DNA of 46,040 nucleotides, taken from positions 1 to 46,040 of the IMG/VR virus record IMGVR_UViG_3300035180_001716, one strand, 5' to 3'. Shown here one piece after another: positions 1 through 33,761 of the stretch. The DNA is from a virus. The notes under the pieces are model-generated. The model did not search any database and was not told the origin of the DNA. It saw nothing but the letters and a program-made list of their open reading frames with translations. The position numbers and the translations under genes are program-made. The first letter of the stretch is position 1, and each line of letters begins with the position of its first letter.

Positions 1-2
1 AG

Positions 3-1472
3 GCGTCCGCTCGCCTCAAGAAACAGGCGGACCCGGCGGAGCAGTCAACGAAGGACCTGGGCGCGTCGATCACGTCGATCAAACTTCCTGCCGTGCAGGC
101 GATGGGCGTCGTCAACACGCTCGCGTCTAGCATCGGCATGCTCGGCGCGGCGGCGGCGTCGTTCGCTGGTGTTCGCCTCGCGGCCCAGTACGAGCGCATC
201 GAGATCGGGTTCAAGTCGATCCTCGGCTCCGCGCAAGCGGCCCACAAGATCATGAGAGAGTTGAGGCAGATGGGCGCAGAGACGCCGTACCGCACCGAGG
301 CGCTCATCGGCTATGCGCGGGGACTTGCGGCGGTCACTCACGACGGCGACAAGGCGGTGGCGACCCTGCGCACGCTGGCAGCGGTCGGTTCGGCGCAGGG
401 CTGGGGCGAGGCGGACGTCGGAGACGTGGCGCGTACGCTCGCCGCTCTCGGCTCATCGTTCCGTCCGGCGGGGCAGGATACGATTATGTCGCTCGCCGCG
501 AAGGGCATTGACATTGCCCGGGTCGCGAAGGCGGCAGGATTGGGCGACTTCGGCACCGACCAGCTCGCCAGCGCACGCGCGGCGCAGGCGATCGGCGCGT
601 ACCAGGGCCCGAGGGCGATGGAACTGCTCATCAAGGGCATGGAGAAAATCTACCCGGCGACGATGAGCTTTACTGGCGTACTCCAGAACCTCGCCGAGTC
701 TCTTTCGCAGATCATGCTCCCGACCGGGCAAATGCTGATACCCGTGCTCGGCGCAATCGCGCGGGCGGTAACGTGGGCCGCGCAGCGCCTCCGCGACCTC
801 AATGAGCGCCTCGGCGGCGCTGGAGGGTTTGCTCTCATCGTTGGCGGTCTCGTGCGCCTTGGGCCGTCGCTCATTGCCAGCATGTATGGGGCGTACATCG
901 GCCTGATGCGCCTGAATGCGGCATTGCAGTCATTGGCGGTGACGTCGAACGCCGCGGCAATGTCAGCTGGCACCGCGGCGGCTACGAATACAGGGGCTGC
1001 GATCGGATGGAAGGCGGCTGGCATAGGTGGCATTCTCGCTCCGGTTCTGAGGTTGTTCGGCGGAGGTCTCGGAAGCACGCTCGCTAAACTGCTCGGAATC
1101 GCCCTGCCAATCGCTGCTCTCGCCGGTGGCATGGCAATGACGAACGATCAACCAGGCGGATGGAACAGTACGAAGAACGCGCTGGGGCGCGGCCTGGAGG
1201 GAGCATTGCCTGGGATGCTCTTGAAGAACATCTACGTCGGTGCCATCGGTGCATTGCTCGGCATTCTGTACGGCATCTGGGAGAACTACCAGCCCAAGCC
1301 GGAGGACGACGCAGCGAAACAAACGGCAGAGAACACGAAGCGGACTGCAGATGCTATGGAACAACTGCGAATGCAGATCATCGGGGGCGGCATTCGAACG
1401 CGCCGCGGGGCATCGGACATCGAGGCGCAGATCAACCTAAGCAGGGCAATGGCTACCCTATCGGGAGTCTAG
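3..1472 (+). CDS. Tape measure protein, copy A (5' end cut by window edge)
   Basis: This is the C-terminal 489 residues of a tail tape measure protein, which sets tail length and lies inside the tail tube. The reading frame is open to the left edge. Against copy B (36570-38126) the missing part is 29 residues, so the full protein would be 518 aa, exactly the length of copy B. The N-terminal half is nearly identical between copies. The middle (about residues 300-430 of the full protein), with hydrophobic Ala/Gly-rich stretches typical of tape measures, is strongly diverged. The last 60 residues, with a charged KPEDDAAKQTAENTKR stretch, are conserved again. Identification rests on position after the frameshifted tail chaperone and on composition; 518 aa is short for the family and implies a short tail. 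Confidence 0.8.
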   Translation, partial: ASARLKKQADPAEQSTKDLGASITSIKLPAVQAMGVVNTLASSIGMLGAAAASFAGVRLAAQYERIEIGFKSILGSAQAAHKIMRELRQMGAETPYRTEALIGYARGLAAVTHDGDKAVATLRTLAAVGSAQGWGEADVGDVARTLAALGSSFRPAGQDTIMSLAAKGIDIARVAKAAGLGDFGTDQLASARAAQAIGAYQGPRAMELLIKGMEKIYPATMSFTGVLQNLAESLSQIMLPTGQMLIPVLGAIARAVTWAAQRLRDLNERLGGAGGFALIVGGLVRLGPSLIASMYGAYIGLMRLNAALQSLAVTSNAAAMSAGTAAATNTGAAIGWKAAGIGGILAPVLRLFGGGLGSTLAKLLGIALPIAALAGGMAMTNDQPGGWNSTKNALGRGLEGALPGMLLKNIYVGAIGALLGILYGIWENYQPKPEDDAAKQTAENTKRTADAMEQLRMQIIGGGIRTRRGASDIEAQINLSRAMATLSGV

Positions 1473-1482
1473 GAGGGATACA

Positions 1483-2001
1483 ATGGCTATTCAGAGCGTT
1501 ACCTACCGCGGCAAGTTGGACGTCGTCGAGGTGCCGAGCGGGGCTGGCATCGCGCCGAGCTCGGTCGTGAACCACACCCTGTTTTCGGGCGGCGTCACTG
1601 CCGGGCGCGACGACGTCTACGGTCCGACCACTACGCCGGCCTGTAACGCCGTGGCGGACTTTCAGCAGGCCCTTTCGTCTGGTGCAGCGACGATCGACCT
1701 GACTGCCCTGCCATCGTTCGGCGGCGCGACGCAGTCGTTCAACGGCAAAAAGGTTGTCGCGGCTAAGTTCCGCAATCCGTCAACGAACGCAAACAGCATC
1801 ACCATCGCACCAGGCGGGACCAACCCGTACGGCCTGCTGGGTACGACGTTCTCGATCACCCTGCAGCCCGGGCAGGAGATTCTGTTCGGCCCGCAGGCGG
1901 CAATCACGGCAAACACGCCGGTCGTGAGCTCGACGATCAAGACCATCGCGCTGACCGGGACGGGCAGCCAGGCGCTTGACGTGCTATTGGTCGCCGGCTA
2001 A
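1483..2001 (+). CDS. Beta-rich tail structural protein, copy A
   Basis: A 172-aa protein rich in Thr, Ser, Gly and Val with alternating hydrophobic residues, suggesting an all-beta virion protein. It has no signal peptide or membrane segment. The SD AGGAGGG overlaps the stop of the tape measure gene, so the two are translationally linked. Its place between tape measure and tail hub is where distal-tail proteins usually lie, but I see no diagnostic motif, so the exact role is open. Copy B (38137-38655) has the same length with only scattered substitutions. Its stop overlaps the stop of the opposing gene at 1998-2180 by four bases. Confidence 0.7.
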   Translation: MAIQSVTYRGKLDVVEVPSGAGIAPSSVVNHTLFSGGVTAGRDDVYGPTTTPACNAVADFQQALSSGAATIDLTALPSFGGATQSFNGKKVVAAKFRNPSTNANSITIAPGGTNPYGLLGTTFSITLQPGQEILFGPQAAITANTPVVSSTIKTIALTGTGSQALDVLLVAG

Positions 2002-2180
2002 TGCCTGGGTTGGGGCCTGGACGCGCGATCCTCGCGTCGGGCCCTCGACCCTACGGCTACAGCGACCAACACGGCGGCAGCGGTCGCCGGTTCGAGCCAG
2101 TTGATGGCGTAGAGCACTGCGCAGGCGAGCAGCACTGCGGCGAGATCATCGCCTGCGTCCTGCAGTGTGTAGCGTGGCAT
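1998..2180 (-). CDS. Small two-helix membrane protein on the antisense strand, copy A
   Basis: A 60-aa protein starting MPRYT with two hydrophobic segments (about residues 13-28 and 33-44) and a highly charged Arg-rich C-terminus, predicted to be an inner-membrane hairpin. It lies alone on the minus strand inside the rightward tail operon. Its start is 11 bases from the GTG start of the hub gene and its stop overlaps the stop of the upstream gene (CTAA). The SD is AGGAGG within a palindrome shared with the opposite gene. The copy B counterpart (38652-38840) keeps the MPRYT start, the D..DL motif, the two helices, VGS and the RR tail, but little else, while flanking genes are nearly unchanged. 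That pattern supports a real, fast-evolving gene. Function unknown; a holin-like, antiholin or superinfection-exclusion role is only a guess. I see no clear minus-strand promoter. Confidence 0.65.
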   Translation of the reverse strand: MPRYTLQDAGDDLAAVLLACAVLYAINWLEPATAAAVLVAVAVGSRARREDRASRPQPRH

Positions 2181-2191
2181 AGGAGCCTCCT
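2181..2191. promoter_or_regulatory. Palindromic ribosome-binding site serving both strands, copy A
   Basis: AGGAGCCTCCT is an 11-base palindrome. Read rightward it gives AGGAG six bases before the GTG at 2192; read leftward it gives AGGAGG five bases before the ATG at 2180. The two start codons are separated by exactly this palindrome. The same arrangement recurs at 38841-38851. Confidence 0.8.
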
Positions 2192-4492
2192 GTGTACTGG
2201 CGATTGACGCTAGATCAACCGTACGTCTGGCCCACTGAGGCGGGTTATCTCGCCTCATTTCATTGTACCGATTTCCTACGCCAGGGCGAAACTACACCAA
2301 CAGTTTACCAGGACCCGATCACCCATCTCGTCATGCTCCGGCCCAACTACGACACGACAGGCGCGTCGTCGGACACCCTGCCCATCTCGGGCTATAGCTA
2401 TCAGCAGGCCTACTGGCGCACGTCGTACGACTCGGACGGCAGGGAGTATCTATCGCCCATATTGCCTGCCGGAGGCGATGAGACACTCATCCAGCTACTG
2501 GTAGACATTGCTATCTATCTGATAATGGGTATGCCTGCCATTCACGACGATCTCGTATGGGCGGTGCACTCGACGCAGACGCTCCGGGCCGATGAGGGGT
2601 TCACGTTTTATTTCAAGCCCCTTTCGGACGAGTTTCAACGAAAGCAGGACTGGTTTTTCATTCAGTGGGACAACATCGGTGTCCATCTTGGGCAGGGGGG
2701 CCGGTGCCGGGTGGTCCTCTACGACCGCGGCGACATGACCAAAACCCCGACGCTCGTCGAGGAGTTCTCGTTCGGGCGGCCCGAGGACCTTGTTGAGCAT
2801 GGGATGATCTCCTTCATTCCGGTCCCCGGCGTCGGCCTCCTGTTTCATGCTAAACGCGTTGCTCCAGGGGCCTCCGCGCGAGCGGCGCGAGCGGAACTCT
2901 GGACCTACAAGGGTCACCTCGTCCGCCTCCCAACGACGTTCGACGCGGCAGGGGTGCCTCACATCACGCAGGAGAGCGCCGTCCACATCGCCGTCAACCC
3001 GTGGGCTCCGACCAGATTAGCACTTGGGCGAGTGAGCTACGGCACGAGCGGCGTCTACGTCGATCAGCCGCGCGACCTCGGCATACCTGTGCCCACGCAG
3101 CCCATCACGATCACGCCCTACTACATCAAGCCGCCGGGCACGAGCGTCTCGGCAGCGGCGAACAACGTCGACGGCACGCCATACGATCCCGGAAGTCACC
3201 GCTATCGGGCGCAACTGACCCTTACGACGACGAACAACTGGCTCACGCCGTTCGTTACCGGCTACACGGCGTACAAACCCTCCGTCCAGACGACGCGGAA
3301 CACGACGCCGATCGTTCTGGCAAACGTGAGCGACGACGGTACCGCGGACCGCCTCCTGCATCTCGAATGGTCACAGGACGAGCGAGACCGGTTCGAGGGG
3401 CGGGCCGTCACGCTCCTGCAGACCCCGGCGGCGCGACGCATTGCCGAGCGGGCCGACACGGTGTTCAAACTGGAGCAGAGCCCGGACAACGCGACCTGGA
3501 CCACACTGTTTGGCGGCATTGCACGCAAACCGACCCTCAAACCCTTCGGAGGCGCTGGGCCGTGGGCCTACATCGCCGAATGGACCCTCCAGGATATCTG
3601 GAGCCGGTTCGAGGAGGTGCGGGTCCTGTGGGCGCCGCGACAGGACAACATGCCGGTGGGCGATGCCATCAATCAGATACTGTCGACGGTGGGTTTCGCG
3701 CCCATTAGTCCTGTGCCAGACGCCGTGAACGCCGTTACGCTCCCGAAGATCATGACCCCGGACCTATCGTGGCAGTTCGCGCCGCGGGAGGGTGACAGTC
3801 TGGAGCAGATGCTGGAAACTCTCCTCCTGTTCCTGCGGGCGCAGTTTGTGGACTGGAAGATGCCGTACAACTGGGACACCGGGCAGTGGAGCATTGTCCA
3901 GCGGTCGCGCGACGTCTCCGCCTACTGGACGCTCGACCCCCGGCCTGGCCGGGCGGACGTGAACAACCGCATATGGCAGTATGGCGACGACACAACCCTG
4001 CGCCCGGAGCCGCCGGAGGGTACGACGCTCCTGCTCATCGGGCGCGCGACGGCTATGCCGATCACGAACACGCCTGGGGTGTCAACGGGTGGTTCGACGA
4101 CGATCGCCATCACCTCCAAACTGCAGAACCCGGCAGCGGGGAACCCGGCGAGCCTCGACTATGCGGGGCGGAACATTCCAGTCATGATCCCCATGTACCC
4201 GATCGACGATCAGCACCAGCTAGACGTCATGGCGCGGCGTCTGTTCGACATGATCATGCATAGAATGCTCGTGGGCACGGTCTCGATACCGATCTACCAG
4301 CCGCTCCTCACTCCAGGCACGCCCGTCAAACTGCTCGATACGACCGGTACGCCGCTCAGCGTCGACGCGCCGAACGGCAGGCCCGCCGAGGCGGATATCC
4401 TCTGGATCAAACGCCGGACAGTAACCATCGACCGAAACAACGCCGAGACGGAGGTGCTTGAGCTGAACTCGATCTGGGAGGCGTTGCAATGA
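2192..4492 (+). CDS. Tail hub / baseplate-like protein, copy A
   Basis: A 766-aa protein, probably the central tail hub at the tail tip. The GTG start is fixed by the SD in the upstream palindrome and by conservation in copy B. Residues about 400-620 (DAINQILSTVGF, then a Leu-rich LEQMLETLLLFLRAQ stretch) and the C-terminus with paired beta-strand domains resemble siphovirus hub proteins of the gp27/Tal type. This is by general pattern and gene order (after tape measure, before fibres), not by a catalytic motif. Copy B (38852-41152) has the same length; differences concentrate at residues 75-130 and about 260-275. It overlaps the next gene by ATGA. Confidence 0.6.
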   Translation: MYWRLTLDQPYVWPTEAGYLASFHCTDFLRQGETTPTVYQDPITHLVMLRPNYDTTGASSDTLPISGYSYQQAYWRTSYDSDGREYLSPILPAGGDETLIQLLVDIAIYLIMGMPAIHDDLVWAVHSTQTLRADEGFTFYFKPLSDEFQRKQDWFFIQWDNIGVHLGQGGRCRVVLYDRGDMTKTPTLVEEFSFGRPEDLVEHGMISFIPVPGVGLLFHAKRVAPGASARAARAELWTYKGHLVRLPTTFDAAGVPHITQESAVHIAVNPWAPTRLALGRVSYGTSGVYVDQPRDLGIPVPTQPITITPYYIKPPGTSVSAAANNVDGTPYDPGSHRYRAQLTLTTTNNWLTPFVTGYTAYKPSVQTTRNTTPIVLANVSDDGTADRLLHLEWSQDERDRFEGRAVTLLQTPAARRIAERADTVFKLEQSPDNATWTTLFGGIARKPTLKPFGGAGPWAYIAEWTLQDIWSRFEEVRVLWAPRQDNMPVGDAINQILSTVGFAPISPVPDAVNAVTLPKIMTPDLSWQFAPREGDSLEQMLETLLLFLRAQFVDWKMPYNWDTGQWSIVQRSRDVSAYWTLDPRPGRADVNNRIWQYGDDTTLRPEPPEGTTLLLIGRATAMPITNTPGVSTGGSTTIAITSKLQNPAAGNPASLDYAGRNIPVMIPMYPIDDQHQLDVMARRLFDMIMHRMLVGTVSIPIYQPLLTPGTPVKLLDTTGTPLSVDAPNGRPAEADILWIKRRTVTIDRNNAETEVLELNSIWEALQ

Positions 4493-4734
4493 TCGCTTCA
4501 GCGGCAGCACGCCGGGCAATGCGACGGGCGAACCAGCGGATCATGGAGCGCGCGGCGGGCCGCCTGCCGTCGGTCATTCACACCGCAGCCGATCAGGTGT
4601 TTGAACGCCAAGCGAGCGGCCTGTCGAGCCTCACTGTTACGCCAGACACGTCACGCCTGCAGGACCCGACTACCGGCGCGTTCTACTTCCTCGCGGGTTA
4701 CTCGGCGGTTGGCGGGCCGGACATCCTGACATGA
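4489..4734 (+). CDS. Small tail-module protein, copy A
   Basis: An 81-aa protein with a basic helical N-terminus (Arg/Ala-rich, residues 1-30) and a Gly/Tyr-containing C-terminus. It is linked by ATGA overlaps to both the hub gene and the fibre gene. The copy B version (41149-41394) has the same length and differs at only a few positions near the C-terminus. I do not recognise the family. Its place between hub and fibre suggests a tail-tip connector or fibre-assembly role. Confidence 0.6.
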   Translation: MIASAAARRAMRRANQRIMERAAGRLPSVIHTAADQVFERQASGLSSLTVTPDTSRLQDPTTGAFYFLAGYSAVGGPDILT

Positions 4735-7628
4735 TCCTGCGGACGACCCGGGTGCGGACGCTGACGTTGACGGGGAGCTTCGATGGCTCCCTGTACTACA
4801 CCCTGCCGCCTCCGCCTCCGGGCATAGGCACGTTGCGACGGCCCACGGTCTCTGCGTCGTTCCCTGCGGCCAATGCCTCTGTTTGGGCAGAAGGCGTTCC
4901 TGGGCCACGGTCGGGCATTATGGTCAAAGCAACGGTCGGCACAACCACGAACTCGACGGACGACATCGTGCAGGTCGTGGCACCTTACACGCGGTCGATC
5001 GCTGGAACGTACACGATCTCTGTGCCAGTCGAGGAGGTCGTTGAACTCACGTTATCCTCCTGGGACGCAGACACGGGTTACCCTATCTGGACTGCGGACT
5101 TGTATGAGCGTACAGCGGTCGGAGGTATGGTCATTGCGTCGATAACTGCTGGTGGCCTCAGCATCAGTGCAACCGGCGCGGTTACGCAGGCAACGCGGAT
5201 CGGTGCCTATGGACCCGAGCTATCGGCAACAATGGACACGAGCCAGTCCGGCTCAACCACGTCGATCTCTGGGAGCATTGCAAACCTGCCACTCTGGCAC
5301 CCTGGATACACATACTCCGAGAGTGGGTGCACGGGCACGATCGCCGCTGGGTCTGTGAGCGCGACGACAGCAGATACGGGCGTTGTCACCGCCGACGGGA
5401 CAATGGCCGGGCAATGCGGCTGGAGCGTCAACGGGATCACGAAGGCATACGACGTGGACTACGTCGGGAACCTCGACCTGCTCATTGATCGCGATTCCGA
5501 CCATCTGCAAACACCCGTCACGGTCGGCGCCTCCTGGACGGACGGAGGCAGTCAGCATGAATACGCCGCCGCCGCCGTAACGATCAATGACGTCACGCAC
5601 AACATGGACACTGCCCAAAGCACCTTCCATCCGGTCAAGGTCCGACTGCGCGCGTCAGGTAGCACCTATAGCCTCGACACGCTCGGGGAGGATACTGCGG
5701 ACGTCTACGTACCATTCCGCTGCTGGCCGACTTTCAGCGCAGTCAGCGCGAAGAACTACGTATTCAGCTTCGATAACTGTTCGACGCTCACTCCCGGAGA
5801 CAACTTGGCTGGCCAGTGGTACGGGCTCGGTGGCGCGGTCCTCTCCATTGAGAACCAACAGATACGCATCGACACGGCGGCGACTGGTATGCAAGGCATC
5901 CGCAGGACGTTCACAAACCGTTGGGCGAACCTGTCTCAGGGGGTCATGGAGCTCGTCATGACGGGCCCCGCCGGGCCGGGCATAACCGTCACGCTCTATT
6001 CGCCGACCGGCGCGACGAAAACGTGGGCACACGATTGGAAAGGGCGGCCGATCGACCTCAGCCTCGGCTACCCGATCCTCGACCTGTGCAACCCGGACAG
6101 CGCGACTGCAGCGGTCGACACCTGGGACACTCGGTGGCCGCTCCCGACGGTCGATTCGGACTATTCGGGCGTCACGAGCTGCAATCAACTGGAGATCACG
6201 GGACTGCAGAACTCGCAAACGTACCATCTCCTCAATATGGAGGTTACATGGGCGAGCAAAACGAACGTTACCTGCATGGCGTCTCGGGCTGGGTGGGCCC
6301 TTGAGCAATCGGCGCAGATCAGCGAGGGCGTCAGCAGTGACACCTACGTCGTGCGTGGCATTCTCGGCATGTCGGACGGCAGGCAGTCGTTCGAAACTGC
6401 GCGCGCCGTCAAGACGGTCGTGCACAGCTCGGGCGGCGACACGACGTCGATTAGCGAGGTGCCCATCGATACCCTGCTTAGTCAGGATAACAACCCGCAG
6501 TTGGAGCCGTGGCCTGCCTATCCGGGCTGGACCATGACGGGCACGATCGTCACAGACCCCGCGGACGGTGGACTGCTCAGCGACTGGCTCAACACGAACC
6601 GGAGTATCGGATGGCTTCGCGGTGGTGGGTGGTCCTACGTTCCCGGCACGGGCTGGGTGGCTGGAACCGACATCCCCGCGGGCGCACCGTCGCAGACGGC
6701 AGACCTCTATGCTCAGGTCTGCGTTGACAGCATTTCGTTCTACCCGGGCTGCGGCGACGCGTTCTCATTCAGTTCGACGAACACGGGCGCATATGGGCCC
6801 ACGCTCTATTGTGCCGCGGCGGCGGTCCTGCGCGGAGGCGGGCATGGGCTCGTCTACGTAGGAGACCCGCGCGTGCCCGTCAACGCACAGACCGTAACGA
6901 ACACGGACACGGTCACGAACGACAGCGCTGGGACAGGCACGACGAACTCCATCGGCTGGTGGGAGAGTGGCACCCCGCTCGGACGGGGCGAGCGGTCCAT
7001 CAAGACCGCCTCAGGGGCGCAGTTCGCCTACACAACCTGGCACAATCGCAAGCGACAGCGGGTTGTCCTCTCGGTGGCGACGCCTGCCGCCTACCGCTGC
7101 GTCGAGTATGACCATCCGCGGAACTGGCTGCATGCGTCGGACGCGAAGAAGATCAAGACGGCCCACGCCTGGGACTTCGCCGCGCTCATGCGGAGCACCG
7201 ACTACCCGTACACGTGGATGAGGCTGCGCGCGAACCCGCATTATGGCTCACTGCTCATGCTGGGGATCACCCCGGCCTCCGCGCCGCCGTACACCTACCA
7301 TGTCTGCTATGGCAAAGACGGCGGTCTGACCACTCAGGAGCTATTTAGCATGACTGCAAACTCGGCGTTGATCGAGCACGACCTTGCCCGGGGCCTATGG
7401 GTGCTCCTATACGAGACCGGCGGGGCGATACAGCGGCGGACCTGTAGCGACGCTTCGGATATGAGCTCGTGGACGGCTGCGACGGCTCTGTCGATCTCGG
7501 GCACGCTTCTCGACTGTGCCTATGACCGCCGGTACGCGCGAATGGCGCTCGTTACGACGTCGGGGAGCGTGACAAAGGTCCTCTCGTCGAGCGACAGCGG
7601 CGAAACCTGGACAGAAAGGCTGGTGTAA
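4731..7628 (+). CDS. Large tail fibre / receptor-binding protein, copy A
   Basis: A 965-aa protein rich in Thr, Ser, Gly, Trp and Cys, with the composition of an adhesin. The N-terminal third (to about residue 330) differs greatly from copy B (998 aa, 41391-44387). From FRCWPTFSAV onward the two are closely similar. The last residues contain an Asp-box motif (SSDSGETWT), typical of BNR/sialidase-like beta-propellers. Large size, position after the hub, and the variable-head, conserved-tail pattern support a host-recognition fibre. It is unusual that the N-terminal, presumably virion-proximal, part is the variable one. Start is by ATGA overlap with the 81-aa gene. Confidence 0.65.
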   Translation: MILRTTRVRTLTLTGSFDGSLYYTLPPPPPGIGTLRRPTVSASFPAANASVWAEGVPGPRSGIMVKATVGTTTNSTDDIVQVVAPYTRSIAGTYTISVPVEEVVELTLSSWDADTGYPIWTADLYERTAVGGMVIASITAGGLSISATGAVTQATRIGAYGPELSATMDTSQSGSTTSISGSIANLPLWHPGYTYSESGCTGTIAAGSVSATTADTGVVTADGTMAGQCGWSVNGITKAYDVDYVGNLDLLIDRDSDHLQTPVTVGASWTDGGSQHEYAAAAVTINDVTHNMDTAQSTFHPVKVRLRASGSTYSLDTLGEDTADVYVPFRCWPTFSAVSAKNYVFSFDNCSTLTPGDNLAGQWYGLGGAVLSIENQQIRIDTAATGMQGIRRTFTNRWANLSQGVMELVMTGPAGPGITVTLYSPTGATKTWAHDWKGRPIDLSLGYPILDLCNPDSATAAVDTWDTRWPLPTVDSDYSGVTSCNQLEITGLQNSQTYHLLNMEVTWASKTNVTCMASRAGWALEQSAQISEGVSSDTYVVRGILGMSDGRQSFETARAVKTVVHSSGGDTTSISEVPIDTLLSQDNNPQLEPWPAYPGWTMTGTIVTDPADGGLLSDWLNTNRSIGWLRGGGWSYVPGTGWVAGTDIPAGAPSQTADLYAQVCVDSISFYPGCGDAFSFSSTNTGAYGPTLYCAAAAVLRGGGHGLVYVGDPRVPVNAQTVTNTDTVTNDSAGTGTTNSIGWWESGTPLGRGERSIKTASGAQFAYTTWHNRKRQRVVLSVATPAAYRCVEYDHPRNWLHASDAKKIKTAHAWDFAALMRSTDYPYTWMRLRANPHYGSLLMLGITPASAPPYTYHVCYGKDGGLTTQELFSMTANSALIEHDLARGLWVLLYETGGAIQRRTCSDASDMSSWTAATALSISGTLLDCAYDRRYARMALVTTSGSVTKVLSSSDSGETWTERLV

Positions 7629-7631
7629 CTC

Positions 7632-8384
7632 ATGGCGATAACTACTCTTGGCGGAACATTGCCGACCTCGGTGACGGCGGCGGGCGTCCGCAACTACTCG
7701 ACAGGTGACTCGGTCTCAGCGGCGGCCCTGCAGGCCGATCTCGGCGATGCCTACGCTCCGGCCATGTACTGCCTTCCGGCGGGGGTGGTGCTTGGGTTCG
7801 CCTGCACGGCCTCTGGTCTCGGCGTAACGATCCCGGCGGGATCTGTCTGGTACGCGCGGCAGGTCTGGCTCGTGACGACAGATACCGTGGTAACGGTGCC
7901 AGACAACGCGACGACCTACCTGTGGGGCTGCTCGGACGGCGTGATCAGACAGACATCGACGACCACTCCGCCGACGGGGTACTCGGCATACACGGCGGCG
8001 ATTGTCGCGCAGGTCTCTGCTTCGGGCGGCGTGGCGACCGTTGCTGCCTACAAACAGTGGGCGATGGGGAGCTCAATCGTTGCCGTCCCGGGCGGTCTGA
8101 CGTCGATCACCGGGGCCCTCCCGGATGCCGACTATACGGTACTCCCGGCACAGTACGCCGGAGAGGTGATCCTCGCGGCGCATTCCGGATGGACAGCGAC
8201 GCACAACCTCGTCATGCCGCTCGCGGCAGGCATGCGCCGGTGGATAGTCAACACGTGCGGGCAGTCGGTCGTCGTCAAAGGGGCAACGGGCACCGGCCCG
8301 ACGATCGCGACGGCGCGCGCGGCCTGCGTCGTCTGTGACGGAACGAACTGGATGCGCCTTACCGCGGATTCGCTCTTGACATAG
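7632..8384 (+). CDS. Tail fibre/tip protein, copy A
   Basis: A 250-aa protein, Thr/Ala/Gly/Val-rich, no membrane segment, probably a trimeric fibre or tip subunit. It starts three bases after the stop of the large fibre gene, with an AAGG-type SD inside that gene. It is strongly conserved in copy B (44391-45143, same length). Its 3' end contains the -35 box of the next promoter (8376-8404), so the coding sequence and the promoter overlap. The C-terminal CDGTNWMRLT segment resembles the ends of many short phage fibre proteins. Role inferred from context and composition. Confidence 0.6.
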   Translation: MAITTLGGTLPTSVTAAGVRNYSTGDSVSAAALQADLGDAYAPAMYCLPAGVVLGFACTASGLGVTIPAGSVWYARQVWLVTTDTVVTVPDNATTYLWGCSDGVIRQTSTTTPPTGYSAYTAAIVAQVSASGGVATVAAYKQWAMGSSIVAVPGGLTSITGALPDADYTVLPAQYAGEVILAAHSGWTATHNLVMPLAAGMRRWIVNTCGQSVVVKGATGTGPTIATARAACVVCDGTNWMRLTADSLLT

Positions 8385-8404
8385 ACGCGCGTACGGCGTA
8401 CAAT
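8376..8404 (+). promoter_or_regulatory. Near-consensus sigma70 promoter for lysis/appendage operon, copy A
   Basis: TTGACA (8376-8381), a 17-base spacer, then TACAAT (8399-8404): one mismatch from consensus. It drives the genes from 8560 on. The -35 lies inside the end of the preceding tip gene. The equivalent at 45135-45163 keeps both hexamers and the spacing while the spacer changes. Confidence 0.85.
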
Positions 8405-8420
8405 GATTGCAACAGCATAT

Positions 8421-8479
8421 AGGCGGCTTTGCGAAGCCCGTTTCCGGCTCAGACGATCCGGGGCGGGCTTCTATCGCCT
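8421..8479 (+). ncRNA. Structured leader with 17-base hairpin element, copy A
   Basis: About 10 bases after the expected transcription start lies GGCGGCTTTGCGAAGCC (8422-8438), which folds as GGCTT-TGCG-AAGCC. The overlapping AAGCCCG (8434-8440) can instead pair perfectly with CGGGCTT (8464-8470), and AGGCG (8421-8425) with CGCCT (8475-8479), so two mutually exclusive folds exist. The 17-mer is identical at 26474-26490 and 45181-45197, each just downstream of a promoter. An antitermination or attenuation element is the likeliest role. Confidence 0.65.
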
Positions 8480-8535
8480 GTGATACCCGCCGTGAGTGCA
8501 CCGGCGTTTGGACCTGACAGCGCGAACGTCCATAA

Positions 8536-8552
8536 CTCCCGCGACGGGGGAG
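8536..8552 (+). promoter_or_regulatory. Hairpin that can mask the ribosome-binding site of the lysis operon
   Basis: CTCCC (8536-8540) is complementary to GGGAG (8548-8552), which is part of the SD for the ATG at 8560. The sequence is identical in copy B (before 45319), so the leader is conserved although non-coding. A role in timing translation is inferred. Confidence 0.4.
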
Positions 8553-8559
8553 GCGCAGG

Positions 8560-8931
8560 ATGACCATTGGAGGAATGTGTCCATTGGCAGGCGACATGCA
8601 GCTTTGTGACCAGGTGATCACACTCGGCAAGGCAGTGCCGGGTCTCATCGAGACGATCAATGCAAATGGCGTGATGCTGGCGCGGATCGAGGAGAAGGTC
8701 AGCGCGTTGCCCGAGATCGCGCGCGGACAGCACGAGGCGGCGCAGCGTCTGGCCGCGCTAGAGGAGCACCTGCGCGCGGCCGAGGCGCGCATCAGCTCGC
8801 TGGAGAAACAACAGGAGGATTCCCGCCGGTTCCTCATCTCGGCCATGTTTGCCGCCGTCATGGGGTTCGTGACGGGGATACTCGGTTTGGCCATGCGCGA
8901 GGGCCATTGGCTCGCGACAGGAGGCAAATGA
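8560..8931 (+). CDS. Coiled-coil, tail-anchored membrane protein (XhlA-like), copy A
   Basis: A 123-aa protein with a long amphipathic coiled coil (about residues 35-85, heptads rich in Glu, Ala and Leu) followed by one C-terminal transmembrane helix (about 92-112, FLISAMFAAVMGFVTGILGL). This layout matches small phage lysis-associated proteins of the XhlA type, and it sits before the amidase and holin genes. A second in-frame ATG at 8575 has its own GGAGGA and could be used. Copy B (45319-45669) is the same to the membrane helix, then ends differently and shorter (116 aa). A role in lysis is inferred from topology and neighbours. Confidence 0.55.
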   Translation: MTIGGMCPLAGDMQLCDQVITLGKAVPGLIETINANGVMLARIEEKVSALPEIARGQHEAAQRLAALEEHLRAAEARISSLEKQQEDSRRFLISAMFAAVMGFVTGILGLAMREGHWLATGGK

Positions 8932-9362
8932 TGGGCACCACTCAGCTCGACATCACTCAGCTCGCGGCAAAAGTCGACGAGATCGTCAAGAAGCTCGCGA
9001 CCATCGCACCGCGGCACTGGAAGGGTAACTGTCCGCCGGACCAGCACCATTTCGACGCCGGGAGCATTCAGGCCGACGCGTCGCTCGACGCAAGCGCGAA
9101 AACGGTAACGATCAGCTTCGAGTTTACCGACCGCGGATCGCCCCACGAGGTAGCGGCGATGATGCGATGGGATCAGATCGGCATTCGAGGTGGTGCGGAC
9201 GTCGTGGCCGTTGACGGCGTCCAGCTCTCTAACGCTGACTGCGTGATCGGGCACCGCGAGGGGCTGGAGGGTCTGCACTGGTACGCGCGCATCGTCTGCG
9301 AGTTCCGCGGCAATCTCCCCACTGGCGCGCCCGTGCACTACCGCTTCGACGGAGACCTCTAA
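8931..9362 (+). CDS. Hypothetical virion or lysis-operon protein, copy A
   Basis: A 143-aa protein with a helical N-terminus (residues 1-25) and a beta-rich remainder containing HWKGNCPPDQHHFDAG and two cysteines. Of two adjacent in-frame ATGs (8928 and 8931) I take the second, because copy B (from 45693) has only that one; the SD is GGAGG. The stop TAA shares a base with the amidase start. No recognised domain. Position suggests a structural or lysis-accessory protein. Confidence 0.55.
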   Translation: MGTTQLDITQLAAKVDEIVKKLATIAPRHWKGNCPPDQHHFDAGSIQADASLDASAKTVTISFEFTDRGSPHEVAAMMRWDQIGIRGGADVVAVDGVQLSNADCVIGHREGLEGLHWYARIVCEFRGNLPTGAPVHYRFDGDL

Positions 9363-9865
9363 TGCCGGACCTGGCGTACATCTGGCTGCCCGCGAGGGCG
9401 TTCAAGCCGGGCAGAACGGGGCCGATCAGTGCGATCATTCTGCATTCGTCCGATGGGCGGGAGCAGGGTGACCTCGAAACGCTCACCGGGCCGGAGGTGT
9501 CGGCGCATTACTACGTGACGCGCGCCGGTACGCTCTATCACCTCGTGCAGGACAGCGACACGGCCTATCACGTCGGCGCGGCGGATCGGCCCGAGCACGG
9601 CAACAGCAGAACGATCGGGATCGAGCAGGAACATATCGACGGGCAGGACGATTGGCCGGAGGCCCAGCTCACGACCGTCGCCCGACTTGTCGCCGCCCTG
9701 CGTCTCAAGCACGGCTATCTGCCAGTGATCTCACATGCCGCAGTGGCCACGCCGCCGGGCCGCAAGGTCGACCCGCAGGGTTACCCGTGGCTCCTGCTCA
9801 GTGCGGCGGTAGAGGCGGAGAAGGGCCGGTCGTGGCGGCTGGTGCCGGCAGGAGAATCGAAATGA
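9362..9865 (+). CDS. Endolysin: N-acetylmuramoyl-L-alanine amidase (amidase_2)
   Basis: A 167-aa single-domain enzyme that cuts the bond between N-acetylmuramic acid and L-alanine in peptidoglycan to release progeny. The family signature is visible: IILHSSDG near residue 22 (zinc-ligand His), SAHYYVTRAGTLYHLVQD near 50, NSRTIGIEQEH near 83, SHAAVATPPGRKVDP near 123 with the second metal His and the Lys of T7-lysozyme-like enzymes, then D-P-Q-G-Y-P-W. There is no cell-wall-binding domain and no signal peptide, so it needs a holin. The ATG overlaps the preceding stop (TAATG), and the gene overlaps the holin gene by ATGA. Confidence 0.9.
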   Translation: MPDLAYIWLPARAFKPGRTGPISAIILHSSDGREQGDLETLTGPEVSAHYYVTRAGTLYHLVQDSDTAYHVGAADRPEHGNSRTIGIEQEHIDGQDDWPEAQLTTVARLVAALRLKHGYLPVISHAAVATPPGRKVDPQGYPWLLLSAAVEAEKGRSWRLVPAGESK

Positions 9866-10044
9866 GCACAATCGCGAAAGTAGCAATACTCACAATCTGC
9901 TACGGCATTCTGGCCGCGGGTGCGACGTGGGCCGTGACGCCGAACTGGCGGACCGCGCTCTGGGGAGGCGTTCTCGGGGCCGCTACGTACCTCAAGGGCA
10001 AACTCGAAGAGCCGCCGGCATCACAGGCCGGCAGGGAGGGCTAA
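9862..10044 (+). CDS. Putative holin
   Basis: A 60-aa membrane protein with two hydrophobic helices (about residues 4-24 and 30-43) separated by a short polar turn containing TPNWRT, and a charged C-terminus. Size, topology and ATGA coupling to the amidase make it the likely pore former that releases the endolysin. No family motif is evident, as is usual for holins. Confidence 0.7.
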   Translation: MSTIAKVAILTICYGILAAGATWAVTPNWRTALWGGVLGAATYLKGKLEEPPASQAGREG

Positions 10045-10347
10045 ATGGCCGAATACGTCGACATTTACTACCTTATGCACAGCGACGGAGACCTCTGGAG
10101 GCGCGTAGAGGTGGCCGCATTCCGAACCGCCTGCGATATCATCAACGAGGATACGGCCACTCCCAACCACACCAATCGCGTTATCTGGGCGAAGCAGGCT
10201 CTCGCGAACCCAGCGGCGAAGGCGGCGGAAATGAAGTACGCGGTGCTTCAGAATGCGACGATCATGGCGGCGGGGAACGACGCGACCGACAACGACGTTC
10301 AGTTCGTCGTCAACTCGGTGATCGACTCATTCGCGACAGGGGCCTGA
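10045..10347 (+). CDS. Hypothetical small phage protein in lysis/appendage operon
   Basis: A 100-aa mostly helical protein starting directly after the holin stop. The pattern DLWRRVEVAAFRTACDII, then NRVIWAKQALANP and a C-terminal NDVQFVVNSVIDSFA, resembles small proteins found beside tail appendage genes in many phages; I do not know a function. No membrane segment or metal-binding motif. Probably virion-associated given the following genes. Confidence 0.6.
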   Translation: MAEYVDIYYLMHSDGDLWRRVEVAAFRTACDIINEDTATPNHTNRVIWAKQALANPAAKAAEMKYAVLQNATIMAAGNDATDNDVQFVVNSVIDSFATGA

Positions 10348-10348
10348 C

Positions 10349-10957
10349 ATGGCGATCTACATGCAGTCGGAACTCAGCCTCCTCACGCAGGCTCGGCTCT
10401 CATTCCCAGGCAATGTGACAGGAACGCCGGTTGACGTCAGCACGAGGCTCTCCGGAGTGGCGTATCTGTGGAAGGCGGTCACTCAGACGACCGCGGACCT
10501 GCAGAGCAGCTCGGACTACATGGCCGTCGAGGTATCAGGGGCCGCATCCGGCAATGACTGGTATGAGTATTTTCGCGCATTGCCAACTAGCACCGCCGCA
10601 GTGACGGTGAGCCTCTCCGCTGCGGCTAACGCTGGGGATACCGTGCTCTCAGTCACCAACACGTCCGGTTTCAACCCAGGTTCGCTGTGCTTCCTCACCT
10701 GCGCCGCGAATCCAGACACTCAGTCGGAATGGGTGCGCATCGTCTCAGTTGTCGCGAATACCAGCATCACGATCAAGGATGGCCTTGCATATGCCAAGGC
10801 GTCCGGCGACGCGCTCTACACGTCTGCCGAGCAGTGGGCGGTCCCGATTGATCTCGGCGGCGTGAAACGCGTGCGGGCCCTTGCGGTACACCGCGGCGCT
10901 ACCGGCTCTAACTGGGTCTGCAAGGCCACAATGACGACTGCGAATAGCATCGGATAG
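10349..10957 (+). CDS. Beta-rich tail appendage protein
   Basis: A 202-aa protein starting one base after the previous stop. It is rich in Ala, Ser, Thr and Val, with a central segment (about residues 90-130, AGDTVLSVTNTSGFNPGS) of the kind seen in phage fibre and appendage beta-sandwich proteins. Probably structural. No enzymatic motif. It precedes a lectin-like gene, suggesting a host-binding cluster. Confidence 0.55.
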   Translation: MAIYMQSELSLLTQARLSFPGNVTGTPVDVSTRLSGVAYLWKAVTQTTADLQSSSDYMAVEVSGAASGNDWYEYFRALPTSTAAVTVSLSAAANAGDTVLSVTNTSGFNPGSLCFLTCAANPDTQSEWVRIVSVVANTSITIKDGLAYAKASGDALYTSAEQWAVPIDLGGVKRVRALAVHRGATGSNWVCKATMTTANSIG

Positions 10958-10963
10958 CGGAGA

Positions 10964-11737
10964 ATGGGCGATCGGTTCATCAGCGTAGGCAACAAGCCCT
11001 GCTCGCCGCCGGGAATCTGGCGGAGGGATTGTCCGTGCCCCGCGCCAACCGTGTTCCTCGGCATGTTACCGAGCGAATATGGTGCGACAGTTATCAGAGA
11101 CGTAGCGAGAGGAACATTTGCTACCAACACCGGGACGTGGACGTCGACCGGGGTCTTTTTCGTTGACACCCAGGCAATAACATATCCCGGTGACAGCTCC
11201 AACGTTGTCATTACGCAGCCGTGCACGATCGCCGTCTCCTTCGTGTTTTACGCTGCATATCATGATTTCAATGTGCTTTATAATACGAACTCGTCAACTG
11301 ATCGAATCGGACTCAACATCCATAAGTCAGACATGAGCCTCGACATTGCACGTATGGGCGTGCAGGACAACTACTCGCCCCCGAATGTCGTTGTTTTCGG
11401 CAGTCCGTATACATTTACTGTCGTAGCGTTGAATAGCTCCAATATTATTGGGTATCTGAACGGGCGCTATCTATGGAGTCCCCCGGCCTGGCAAATCGTT
11501 GCCAATGGGACAATCGCTGTATTCGGTAACGATAGCAGTCTCTCATACTCGTCCGGTTGCACGATTTCCACGATCGCCATCTGGAGTAACAGGGCGCTTA
11601 CTGCCGCCGAGGTTCTGGCACACTATAACGATCCCTATATGTGGCTGCGCGCAGGCAGGTCAGTGTTCTACTCCATCCCGAGCGGGGCGATTCGCGTTCC
11701 GTGGCACCTGTTCACGCCCGTTGCAGGAGGCGCATAA
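10964..11737 (+). CDS. LamG/concanavalin-like lectin appendage protein
   Basis: A 257-aa protein. Residues about 60-225 look like a jelly-roll LamG/ConA-like lectin: a YNTNSSTDRIGLNI-type strand, a GYLNGRYLW strand, and the typical ending AIWSNRALTAAEVLAHYNDP. Such domains bind carbohydrates and are common in phage adhesins. The N-terminal CSPPGIWRRDCPCPAP is cysteine-rich. Bases 11221-11340 are about 44% GC by hand count, well below the surroundings, suggesting acquisition from elsewhere. Start supported by GGAG six bases upstream. Confidence 0.65.
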   Translation: MGDRFISVGNKPCSPPGIWRRDCPCPAPTVFLGMLPSEYGATVIRDVARGTFATNTGTWTSTGVFFVDTQAITYPGDSSNVVITQPCTIAVSFVFYAAYHDFNVLYNTNSSTDRIGLNIHKSDMSLDIARMGVQDNYSPPNVVVFGSPYTFTVVALNSSNIIGYLNGRYLWSPPAWQIVANGTIAVFGNDSSLSYSSGCTISTIAIWSNRALTAAEVLAHYNDPYMWLRAGRSVFYSIPSGAIRVPWHLFTPVAGGA

Positions 11738-12765
11738 TGGCAAGCCGAGGACAGAGCCTGACGCTCTCGTATGTGGCATGGGACACGGTGAACAACGTCG
11801 GGAAGACGGGCGATTCCGCCAACCATACCCTACGATGGGTCAAAGACGGCACGAGCGCGCCTCCCGACGGTTCCCCGACGATCACCGAGGTCGACGCGAC
11901 GAACGCGCCGGGGGTCTATAAACTGATGCTCGATGCCACCGATTGCTCCTGCAATGTGGGCACGCTTGTGGGCAAATCGGCGACCTCCGGGGTTGTCATC
12001 ATCCCGGTCACCGTCACGTTTGAACAGCTTCCTACGGCGGCTCCCGGGGCAAGTGGGGGATTGCCCACTACCGATGGTACCAAACTCAACCAAACCGCGG
12101 CCCTAACATCCGCCGAGCATTCGTTGATCTCCGGGACCGATGTCCCGGCTGGCCTGACCGCGCAGGGGTACACGACGGCGCGGGCCGGATACCTCGACAC
12201 GCTCAATGGCATTGTCGCGTCCATCTGGAACGCGTTGACGTCCGGCATGAGCGTCGTGGGGAGCGTCGGCAAGCGCATCGCGGACTACCTCGACGTGGCA
12301 GTATCCTCTCGCGGAACCGGTACGGCACTCGACGCGGCGGGCGTACGATCCGCAGTCGGTCTCGCCTCGGCGAACATCGACACGCAGTTGGCGGCCCTGC
12401 CGACGACCACCGTGCTCAACAGTCGCACGCTCCCGAGCGCGAGCTATGCCCTGCAATCGAGTCTCGATGCTCACCTACCGATGGCGGTCAAACGCAACCA
12501 GGCGCTCCCGTCGTTCACGTTCGTTATGCTCGACTCGGCTGATCACGTCACGCCCAAGGCCGGCCTGACGGTCACCGCGCGGCGCAAACTGGACACGGGG
12601 GCCTGGGCGTTGTGCACGAATGCCGTCACCGTCGATGCCACGGCTCCCGTTCCGACGTATATGATCGACCTGGCGGCGGCGGACCTCAACGGCGCAGTTG
12701 TGACGCTCTCGTTCACGGCAAGCGGGGCGGATCCGCTTCAGATCACGATCCTGACGCAGGCGTAG
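11737..12765 (+). CDS. Tail fibre/appendage protein
   Basis: A 342-aa protein. The start is the ATG overlapping the previous stop (TAATG), preceded by CAGGAGG; upstream in-frame Mets lie inside the lectin gene. The N-terminal 100 residues form a beta domain (SLTLSYVAWD, then a GVYKLMLDATD strand). The middle contains the low-complexity LDVAVSSRGTGT type segment common in phage fibre shafts, and the C-terminus is another beta domain. Probably a structural fibre of the tail tip or baseplate upper domain. No enzyme motif. Confidence 0.6.
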   Translation: MASRGQSLTLSYVAWDTVNNVGKTGDSANHTLRWVKDGTSAPPDGSPTITEVDATNAPGVYKLMLDATDCSCNVGTLVGKSATSGVVIIPVTVTFEQLPTAAPGASGGLPTTDGTKLNQTAALTSAEHSLISGTDVPAGLTAQGYTTARAGYLDTLNGIVASIWNALTSGMSVVGSVGKRIADYLDVAVSSRGTGTALDAAGVRSAVGLASANIDTQLAALPTTTVLNSRTLPSASYALQSSLDAHLPMAVKRNQALPSFTFVMLDSADHVTPKAGLTVTARRKLDTGAWALCTNAVTVDATAPVPTYMIDLAAADLNGAVVTLSFTASGADPLQITILTQA

Positions 12766-12769
12766 GGCC

Positions 12770-12958
12770 ATGATACTGACCTGGGGAAGGCGGGGGCAGG
12801 CGTACGTTGATACGGGCTTGGGGCGCGTCGTCTACGGAACTGAGGGGGCCATCATTGTGCCCAAGACGCCGATCCCGGTAGTCGCGCGCACGAGCCGAGA
12901 CGTCATCCGTTCCAGCACGTCTGGGAGCGTGAAGCCGGGCACCGTACGCATTGAGTAG
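12770..12958 (+). CDS. Hypothetical small protein
   Basis: A 62-aa protein, beta-prone, containing two short Gly/Val/Ile strands. It follows the fibre gene with a four-base gap and overlaps slightly with the leader of the next gene. No recognised domain; presumably part of the appendage cluster. Confidence 0.45.
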   Translation: MILTWGRRGQAYVDTGLGRVVYGTEGAIIVPKTPIPVVARTSRDVIRSSTSGSVKPGTVRIE

Positions 12959-12971
12959 GGGAGGGCAGGAC

Positions 12972-13301
12972 GTGGACCGCTACGAGTACGAGCAGGGGAC
13001 AGTCGCCATCATCGGTTTCACGGTCCAAACGACCGCTGGGAACACGCTCCAGATCATGCAGGCCCCACTATGGACATTGACCAGCCGAGACGGATTGCTG
13101 GCAGCCTCCGGCGCCTGCACGAGCTATGACGTCGCCGCGAAACAAACACCGACCGCCTACATGGCCATCGACACGACAGCGATACCGGCAGGGCAGTACG
13201 ACCTAACGGCGACCATCCATCTCATCGGCTCCGACAACCTGACGCGCACCGAAACTCCAACCTGCCGCGTGCAGATTTCAGACCGTCCGCCGTGGCCGTA
13301 G
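12972..13301 (+). CDS. Hypothetical beta-sandwich-like protein
   Basis: A 109-aa protein with Ig-like alternating strands (YDLTATIHLIGSDNLTRTE near the C-terminus). I chose the GTG at 12972 because GGGAGGGCAGG lies just upstream; a TTG at 12951 is an alternative. It is the last gene of the rightward appendage operon, followed by a strong hairpin before the convergent leftward genes. Confidence 0.5.
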   Translation: MDRYEYEQGTVAIIGFTVQTTAGNTLQIMQAPLWTLTSRDGLLAASGACTSYDVAAKQTPTAYMAIDTTAIPAGQYDLTATIHLIGSDNLTRTETPTCRVQISDRPPWP

Positions 13302-13333
13302 GGCTGGGCGTGGGGACGCCATTGAGCGGCGGA

Positions 13334-13370
13334 GGAGGCCCCGGCGGCGTGAGTGGCTACCGGGGCCTCC
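13334..13370. terminator. Hairpin between convergent operons
   Basis: GGAGGCCCCGG (13334-13344) and CCGGGGCCTCC (13360-13370) form a perfect 11-bp stem with a 15-base loop, between the rightward operon end (13301) and leftward operon end (13377). There is no U-run on either strand, so it may stop transcription only weakly or protect 3' ends. Confidence 0.6.
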
Positions 13371-13376
13371 GAATGC

Positions 13377-13787
13377 TCAGCGGTTGACGCATTTCCTGAT
13401 GAACTGTGACATCGTGAGGCATTCCTCCTCCGCGCGCCTGCGAATATGCGCCAGCTCCGCCTCCGACAGGCGGAACCGAATAACCCGATCCCTGGGTTCC
13501 TGAATGTCGACGAGTCCGAGGACCTCGGCGAACTCTTCAAGCGCGTTCGCGTGCCTGCCCTCCTCCAGCAATTTCCGCGCGCGCGCCGGAGTGACGGGTA
13601 TGATGCGCGCCCCAGCGAACTCCGTCTTTGGGCCTCCCTCGCCTGCAAGGAACCACCGCCCGCCGTTGGGGGCGTAGTATAGCGTCGCAAGCCAGCAAGA
13701 CTCCTGATCAAACGGGTTGTGGTAAACCGGCGCAACCGGTATCGCATGCTTGGTGTCGTAGGTGACGCCGTCAATGGCCTGCCGCAT
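13377..13787 (-). CDS. Small phage domain fused to ribbon-helix-helix-like C-terminus
   Basis: A 136-aa protein. Residues 1-95 are paralogous to the whole of the neighbouring 13805-14149 product: a DGVTYDT start, an ATLYYAPNGGRWFLAGEGG core and an IPVTPARARKLLEEG helix. Residues about 98-136 (RVIRFRLSEAELAHIRRRAE, ending SQFIRKCVNR) match the ribbon-helix-helix/MobC-like DNA-binding pattern. So this copy has gained or kept a DNA-binding tail that the paralogue lacks. It is the last gene of the leftward operon. Likely a small regulator, target unknown. Confidence 0.6.
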   Translation of the reverse strand: MRQAIDGVTYDTKHAIPVAPVYHNPFDQESCWLATLYYAPNGGRWFLAGEGGPKTEFAGARIIPVTPARARKLLEEGRHANALEEFAEVLGLVDIQEPRDRVIRFRLSEAELAHIRRRAEEECLTMSQFIRKCVNR

Positions 13788-13804
13788 CTCCGTTTGATCC
13801 TCCC

Positions 13805-14149
13805 TCAGACCGCGACCGGAAGACTGTCAGCGTCGACCACGCCCAGTTCCTCGGCGTAGGCGTCGAGCGCGCGCTGGCATTCGTCATCGCCATGTTCGAG
13901 GATTTCCCGGACGCGCGCTGGCGACAGGGGAACCAGACCTGAACCGCTCGTCGACACATTGCCCATGGTCTGCCCGAACATGCTCAGCGGTCCGCCATCG
14001 CCAACGACGAACCATCGCCGTGAGCGTGGCGTCACGTAGAGCTGCCCGCGGTAATGGGAGTGGGAGTCGGCGCCTCCGGACACCCGAGCCACCGCGATAG
14101 CGCGCATCGTATCGTACCGAACTCCGTCAAGCACCGCCTTCATTGCCAT
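13805..14149 (-). CDS. Small phage protein, paralogue of 13377-13787
   Basis: A 114-aa protein with the domain outline shared with its downstream neighbour: DGVRYDTMRAIAVA, then RGQLYVTPRSRRWFVVGDGG, then LVPLSPARVREILEHG. The YDT...LY.TP..RWF..G.GG pattern recurs in small proteins of many phages and plasmids, but I know of no established function. The SD GGAGGAG lies before the ATG. No DNA-binding tail here. Confidence 0.6.
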   Translation of the reverse strand: MAMKAVLDGVRYDTMRAIAVARVSGGADSHSHYRGQLYVTPRSRRWFVVGDGGPLSMFGQTMGNVSTSGSGLVPLSPARVREILEHGDDECQRALDAYAEELGVVDADSLPVAV

Positions 14150-14168
14150 TCTCCTCCTGTGTGTGAGT

Positions 14169-14192
14169 GGGGCGGGAAATCACTCCCGCCCC
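14169..14192. terminator. GC-rich intergenic hairpin in the leftward operon
   Basis: GGGGCGGGA (14169-14177) pairs perfectly with TCCCGCCCC (14184-14192) across a six-base loop, between two leftward genes. No U-run follows on the minus strand, so partial termination or an mRNA-processing/stability role is more likely than full termination. Confidence 0.45.
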
Positions 14193-14197
14193 GAGTG

Positions 14198-14875
14198 TTA
14201 GTTCTGCTCGACGATCCGAATGCTGGAGCCCGAGCAGCACCGAACGTAGACGCTATCCGCGATCCGGACGAGATCGTAGAGCATGTCCCCGGTCAACTCC
14301 GCGTCCGGCCAGACGGTGACCGTGGCGTACCGCAGGTCACCAGTCACGTCGACAGTGTCGCCCTTGTGGAGGTCCAGGAACCATTCCCGCACCAGGCCGG
14401 GGAATGGAGGGCGAGTGACCCCGAGCGCTTCCCATGCGCGGTTCCACGCCTCGATATGGCGGTTTCCCCAGGCGGTCTGTATCGCGCCGAACTCCAGTAC
14501 CTGCCCGCCCTCAATAACGGAGTATGCCTCCGTCCCGTTCGGGCGGCTGATCGTGACAGAATAGCGTATCCGCTCGTCGCCAGGTCCCAGGGACACGTCG
14601 ATCATCGTCCGCCCGGTAAGCGTCGTGTGCTGCACATGGAAACGGCCTCCCGTGAAGTCGATCGACGGCCCAGTTATCCCCTTGCCCATCGCGCCCTCAG
14701 GCGTCGCCTCTTCGATCTCCTCCAGCGTGGGGCGCTGATCATCAAAATCCCAGTATGCCTCACCCTGCGGCACCACGCTGGAACGCGCCCACCCATGCTC
14801 GTAGGCGCGGGCAATGCGAAGCGCCGCGTTGGCGAGGTCGATCGGCATCTCCTGCCATACCTGTTCACGTGTCAT
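14198..14875 (-). CDS. Hypothetical protein, paralogue of 25510-26193
   Basis: A 225-aa protein. The ATG at 14875 is chosen for its GGAGGAG and because its product aligns end to end with the rightward paralogue at 25510-26193: both begin M..E..W...P...AN.ALRIAR.Y, share E..TPE near residue 55, an S/I..GG..HV beta segment and VIEGG near 120, RAWE..G...PPFPG near 155, and a C-terminal L..RI/DRADSV segment. It looks like an alpha/beta accessory protein of unknown role; no catalytic motif is visible. Each paralogue sits in a different accessory cluster on opposite strands. Confidence 0.6.
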   Translation of the reverse strand: MTREQVWQEMPIDLANAALRIARAYEHGWARSSVVPQGEAYWDFDDQRPTLEEIEEATPEGAMGKGITGPSIDFTGGRFHVQHTTLTGRTMIDVSLGPGDERIRYSVTISRPNGTEAYSVIEGGQVLEFGAIQTAWGNRHIEAWNRAWEALGVTRPPFPGLVREWFLDLHKGDTVDVTGDLRYATVTVWPDAELTGDMLYDLVRIADSVYVRCCSGSSIRIVEQN

Positions 14876-14964
14876 TTCGTCCTGCTCCTCCGCTGCGTCC
14901 CGGGTCGGTGACGGCTTACGCGATGTAGGGGCCCGCCTATTGCCGGGCGGGCGCGGCTTGTACG

Positions 14965-15216: not shown

Positions 15217-15303
15217 CGTCCTTCTCCTCCGCTGCGCTCCGGTCACGGTAGCGTCTTGTGCGGGGTTTGCCTCATCAGCATGGGGGGAACCGCCTCCCCG
15301 TGG

Positions 15304-15321: not shown

Positions 15322-15330
15322 TTCGGCAGA

Positions 15331-15780: not shown

Positions 15781-15800
15781 AGTCGTGGAGGTGATGAACC

Positions 15801-33760: not shown

Positions 33761-33761
33761 C

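What the first reader, a model, noticed from the sequence alone, without database searches (positions are those of the whole stretch)
1..9278. Window runs 1.25 turns of a roughly 36.65-kb genome through two diverged variants
Copy A and copy B are colinear homologues separated by 36654 bases. The window starts with exactly 127 bases identical to 36655-36781, and the first mismatch is at base 128. A value of 127 matches a common assembler word length, which hints that the contig passes a shared node and then leaves into a second strain. If instead it is real, this would be an unusual tandem duplication of a whole tail-lysis module.
Basis: partly seen in the sequence, partly recalled or inferred. 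Interest (0 to 1): 0.7.

Follow-up and report, generated by a model that had tools for sequence, protein, structure and literature searches.

The report
Phage contig overrunning its circle
The apparently duplicated tail-gene block is almost certainly not a real duplication: the assembler walked once round a roughly 37-kb phage genome and then on into a second strain's version of the same tail genes, so the finding is an ordinary assembly effect.

Summary
Window 1-9278 (copy A) and 36655-46040 (copy B) are colinear homologues offset by 36654 bases, and the window's first 127 bases equal 36655-36781 exactly, with the first mismatch at base 128.

127 is the largest k-mer of a documented JGI metaSPAdes recipe. 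At k=127, and at none of the other k tested, window base 1 is itself a branch vertex. Contig ends in three other assemblies of this phage group stop at exact matches of 126-127 bases.

Two related contigs close on themselves (38.36 and 37.84 kb) with one copy of the block each. An independent 24-kb contig runs from the window's core into B. Another runs from a different core, through a 225-base identical block, into A. So A and B are alleles of one slot in different molecules. Their synonymous divergence resembles that between separate strains.

True duplication is very unlikely. What remains real is modest: tail-module alleles, including a swapped N-terminal domain in a ~1000-aa protein, in a phage that encodes YqaJ and RecT. 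Not shown: which haplotype joins A to this core.

The parts
1..9278 (+). Copy A: tail module allele (3' part of the tape-measure-like gene, 172-aa, 766-aa, 81-aa, 965-aa, 250-aa, 123-aa genes, start of 151-aa gene)
   Evidence: Self-BLAST, ORFs; 1-718 identical to G018, where it follows a different core
36655..46040 (+). Copy B: the homologous allele (172-aa, 766-aa, 81-aa, 998-aa, 250-aa, 116-aa genes), broken off at the contig end
   Evidence: Self-BLAST; core-to-B junction seen at 100% up to 38639 in G008 from another sample
1..127 (+). Branch vertex of length k=127 at the contig start
   Evidence: Identical to 36655-36781, mismatch at 128; in 1 / out 2 in a k=127 graph only
36655..36781 (+). 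The same 127-base vertex, passed a second time inside the contig
36557..36781 (+). 225-base block identical between the window's core/B path and G018's core/A path: merge at 36557, split after 36781
8752..8901 (+). Second shared block: 127 bases (8752-8878) are the exact end of G002 and exact start of G018; identity with G018 runs 150 bases; possible strain-crossing point
9279..36654 (+). Single-copy core: amidase, accessory genes, YqaJ, RecT, primase/helicase, terminase, portal, capsid, head-tail genes
   Evidence: 14580-36654 identical to G008
4731..7628 (+). 965-aa tail protein of allele A; N-terminal third only 33% identical to B's 998-aa protein (41391-44387)

Best explanation
The window is one metagenomic contig that walks a little more than once round the circular map of a ~37-kb tailed-phage genome. 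In a k=127 assembly graph, a 127-base node inside the tape-measure-like gene has one way in (the head-tail genes) and two ways out: allele A and allele B of the tail module, carried by different strains. The contig starts at the node on A, runs through the core, comes back through the node and leaves on B, where it breaks off. A and B are therefore alternative occupants of one slot, not two copies in one virion. Shown: the sequence facts, the k=127 coincidence, single-copy relatives that close on themselves, and core-to-B and core-to-A junctions in independent contigs. Inferred: the assembler's path choice, and that the A and B strains co-occur in the window's own sample. Unresolved: whether A plus this core (9.3-36.6 kb) is one real haplotype.
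For: Exact 127-base match starting at base 1; base 1 is a branch vertex at k=127 and at none of k 55, 77, 99, 141. JGI metaSPAdes k series ends at 127 (PMC10604447); k-length repeats at contig ends and assembler-made duplicated regions are documented (PMC8116208). Contig ends in three other assemblies of this group stop at 126-127-base exact matches. G001 closes at 38360 bp by a 127-base overlap and G003 at 37842 bp by 107, each with one copy. G008: 24060 bases 100% identical, core into B. G018: other core, 225-base shared block, then A 1-718 identical. A-B dS (0.46 in the 766-aa gene; 0.32-0.83 over all genes) is like that between separate strains (0.28-0.64).
Against: No reads or assembly graph were available, and the window's own sample is unknown. 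G018 and G008 were assembled with similar methods, so their junctions across blocks longer than 127 bases could themselves be misjoined. B's end does not rejoin the core in the window, so the simplest two-strain bubble is not fully displayed.
Confidence: 0.93

Rival explanations
1. True tandem duplication: one phage genome carries two diverged, functional copies of the tail / pre-lysis module.
For: Both copies have intact reading frames and low dN relative to dS.
Against: Intact alleles in two strains look the same. Two self-closing relatives have one copy. G018 shows head-tail genes, not B's end, before A. Copies differ about as much as strains do. The start falls exactly on a k=127 vertex.
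Confidence: 0.02
2. Chimeric variant of the best explanation: A belongs to a G018-like strain and was joined to this core by the assembler across a shared block (for example 8752-8901), so that 1-9278 and the core are not even from one strain.
For: A matches G018 exactly at both comparable ends (1-718 and 8752-8901), while G018's core is only about 89% identical to the window's. 8752-8878 is a node of exactly 127 bases in sample 3300037010.
Against: Beyond 8901 the window is like neither G018 nor B, so a simple crossing between these two strains does not fit; a 150-base block can be bridged by read pairs. Real recombinants exist in the group (G010). This is a sub-case within the 0.93 given to the best explanation, not an addition to it.
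Confidence: 0.35
3. Terminally redundant headful molecule formed by recombination of two co-infecting strains, carrying A at one end and B at the other (a terminal-redundancy heterozygote).
For: The phage encodes YqaJ and RecT, and related contigs close on themselves.
Against: A redundancy of 25% of the genome is far above what headful phages normally show (own knowledge). Such ends would be scattered in a population, not fixed exactly at a 127-base node.
Confidence: 0.01

Closest known systems
Assembler-concatenated viral contigs and k-mer-length terminal repeats (CheckV, PMC8116208)
   Same: Circular template overrun by an assembler; repeat of exactly one k-mer length; duplicated region of at least 20% of the contig (here 9386 of 46040, 20.4%).
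   Different: The overrun went into a diverged allele (about 86-89% identity in the alignable blocks), so only 127 bases repeat exactly, and terminal-repeat or k-mer-frequency checks would miss it.
Strain-variant branching in de Bruijn graphs of viral populations (discussed in PMC11443906)
   Same: Identical stretches longer than k between strains; paths cannot be phased; possible chimeric joins.
   Different: Nothing in kind; here the branch happens to lie on a circular map, so both alleles end up in one contig.

Membership tests
k-mer-node assembly overrun of a circular map | Repeat length equals an assembler k and the contig terminus lies on the branch vertex | tested here: met
   127 bases exactly; base 1 is a vertex only at k=127
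k-mer-node assembly overrun of a circular map | Relatives close as circles of about the repeat distance with one copy | tested here: met
   G001 38360 bp, G003 37842 bp; repeat distance 36654
k-mer-node assembly overrun of a circular map | Each allele found alone in the slot in independent contigs | tested here: met
   G008 for B (first 1985 bases), G018 for A (first 718 bases)
k-mer-node assembly overrun of a circular map | Coverage of A plus B equals coverage of the core; graph edge boundary at the node | not testable with these tools
   No reads or assembly graph held
True tandem duplication | Both copies in one molecule, the end of B joined to the start of A | tested here: not met
   In G018 copy A is preceded by head-tail genes and the tape-measure start; no contig with two copies was found among those fetched. 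Not tested on single molecules.
True tandem duplication | Copies closer to each other than to other strains, or both types found together in relatives | tested here: not met
   A-B divergence about equals between-strain divergence; no relative has both

The most novel reading that the evidence does not exclude
A phage that is truly partially diploid for its tail module, carrying two alleles (with different N-terminal domains of the ~1000-aa tail protein) in one genome and so able to make two kinds of tail tip.
Probability: 0.02. Interest if true: 0.6.

Novelty: not a real feature. Interest (0 to 1): 0.12.

Why it matters
It keeps a false 46-kb genome with a false duplicated tail module out of catalogues. 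It also gives a simple signature for such records: colinear homologous ends, with an exact k-length match starting at base 1, which terminal-repeat and k-mer-frequency checks would not see. The real content is a small population-genetic point: tail-module alleles segregate in a phage group that carries its own recombinase genes.

Tried and rejected
Search for more contigs bearing A's unusual N-terminal domain: none. Search for a contig linking the window's 9.3-14.6 kb to another left neighbour: none identical. Structure predictions of the 766-aa and 965-aa tail proteins with five-sequence alignments were useless (mean pLDDT 29 and 28), so no fold search was run. A host hint via the capsid protein gave only a 41% relative in a contig binned as Candidatus Omnitrophota; I draw no host from it. 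No held paper names sample 3300035180. Relatives cannot be drawn for a virus record. A first alignment of the 24.1-kb hairpin included one wrongly placed sequence and was redone. Considered and dropped: chance repeat (BLAST E = 0), tandem array, transposition.

Full report
OBSERVATION. The window is one whole IMG/VR record of 46040 bp, classed 'linear'. Its first 127 bases are identical to 36655-36781 and the first mismatch is at 128. Self-BLAST gives four colinear blocks (86.1, 88.3, 89.0 and 85.9% identity) covering 1-9278 against 36655-46040, with low-similarity gaps at 917-1268, 2001-2166 and 4763-5699. The 127-base run is the longest exact run between the copies; the next are 68 and 67. 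One correction: copy B ends at the equivalent of 9278, about 80 bases before the amidase gene at 9362, so the window contains no B-to-amidase junction.

WHAT THE PHAGE IS. Gene content read in the order of the circular map: small and large terminase, portal, head morphogenesis, protease, major capsid (26.4-33.0 kb), head-tail genes, a tape-measure-like gene (36570; below Pfam's cut-off, but supported by weak PHROG hits), several tail genes without family matches, a weak holin hit, an amidase endolysin (9362), then YqaJ exonuclease (17421), RecT (18428) and primase/helicase (21863). It is a tailed phage. The closest terminase among isolate phage records is 41% identical, and the 766-aa tail protein has no match there.

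THE TEST BY RELATIVES. Scans of IMG/VR found 22 further contigs of the same phage group. Two matter as whole genomes. G001 (IMGVR 3300035180_001524, 38487 bp) begins and ends with the same 127 bases, so it closes as 38360 bp. G003 (3300035180_001355, 37949 bp) closes by 107 bases as 37842 bp. Each has exactly one copy of the module. Two others show the junctions. G008 (3300035181_001174) is 100% identical to window 14580-38639 over 24060 bases, so the core-to-B junction exists in another sample. G018 (3300037010_001793) has a core only about 89% identical to the window's, then a 225-base block identical to window 36557-36781, whose last 127 bases are the first of copy A; its identity with A runs letter for letter over A 1-718. 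What precedes copy A elsewhere is therefore the head-tail region and the start of the tape-measure gene, as expected of an allele in the same slot, and not the end of copy B as a tandem duplication would require.

WHY 127. JGI data are assembled with metaSPAdes at k = 33, 55, 77, 99, 127, as stated for one project in PMC10604447. The CheckV authors note that terminal repeats of assembler k-mer lengths arise when a circular template is broken, and that assemblers sometimes concatenate copies of a genome (PMC8116208). In an explicit k=127 graph of the window alone, base 1 is exactly a vertex with one way in and two ways out; at 55, 77 or 99 the vertex falls elsewhere, and at 141 there is none. 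Adding G018 and G008 puts the merge at 36557 and the split vertex at 36655. In G018 the identity block is 225 bases, so the contig appears to keep only its last k; the caveat is that G018 comes from another sample. Other assemblies of this group show the same mark: G002's end and G018's start share exactly 127 bases (which are window 8752-8878), G016's end and G012 share 127, G001 closes on itself with 127, and G003, G013 and G015 stop at 126-base matches to G001.

ALLELES, NOT PARALOGUES. Synonymous divergence A-B in the shared tail genes is 0.32-0.83 (0.46 in the 766-aa gene, 0.49 in the 172-aa gene, 0.50 in the 250-aa gene), with low dN. A or B against G001-G003 gives 0.28-0.64 in those three genes, and the single-copy capsid, portal, terminase and primase genes give 0.31-0.57 between strains. 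A and B thus differ as strains of this group differ. The strongest local difference is the N-terminal third of the 965/998-aa tail protein (33% identity). G001, G002 and G003 all carry the B type, and no other contig has the A type.

MECHANISM. The contig began at the node on edge A, went through the core, re-entered the node and left on edge B. The core-to-B link is confirmed independently; A-to-core is seen only in this window. Both ends of A that can be compared match G018 exactly (1-718 and 8752-8901), while G018's core differs. So A may belong to a G018-like strain and have been joined to this core across a shared block, or A plus this core may be a real recombinant. Recombinants probably exist in the group: G010 (3300035182) joins 4035 bases identical to the window to 4.7 kb identical to G002, with only 77 shared bases at the join, less than one k-mer. 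The window beyond 8901 resembles neither G018 nor B closely, and B's end does not rejoin the core in the window, so more than two haplotypes are involved. The reads would decide; they are not held here.

VERDICT. The duplication is not a real feature of a phage genome. Confidence is 0.93 that this is a graph path through allelic variants, and 0.02 that it is a true duplication.

Noticed in passing
window 15261-15328 (-); also G001 (two), G003, G016, G018 (two): Type II hammerhead ribozyme, Rfam RF02276, 42 bits in the window and 44-54 bits in relatives, one or two copies per genome in the leftward accessory region.
   Followed up: partly
window 24055-24159: Long hairpin just after the primase/helicase gene (DNA fold z -8.6). 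Relatives keep the roughly 33-pair stem although the arms change, with 9 pairs changed on both sides; the loop keeps CTATATGAGTCA. It may be a replication origin or a strong terminator; function not tested.
   Followed up: partly
window 4731-5699 versus 41391-42455: N-terminal third of the 965/998-aa tail protein is swapped (33% identity), while the C-terminal two thirds are 88% identical; a candidate receptor-related domain exchange. A's type was found in no other contig.
   Followed up: partly
G010 (IMGVR_UViG_3300035182_000260): Mosaic contig: 4035 bases identical to the window's core next to 4.7 kb identical to G002, sharing only 77 bases at the join, less than k=127; probably a real recombinant.
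   Followed up: no
window 17421-19237: YqaJ-type exonuclease and RecT annealing protein side by side, a phage recombination pair that could drive the mosaicism.
   Followed up: no
window 20577-20640 and 21178-21241: A 64-base repeat (88%) gives two neighbouring small ORFs the same tail (GGFISFLGEENCDA); nearby small ORFs at 19630, 21221 and 21459 share a WA(D/E)xPxPW ending.
   Followed up: no
G001 (IMGVR_UViG_3300035180_001524): Classed 'linear' (no end repeats) although its first and last 127 bases are identical; it looks like a complete 38360-bp circular map that the database class misses.
   Followed up: no
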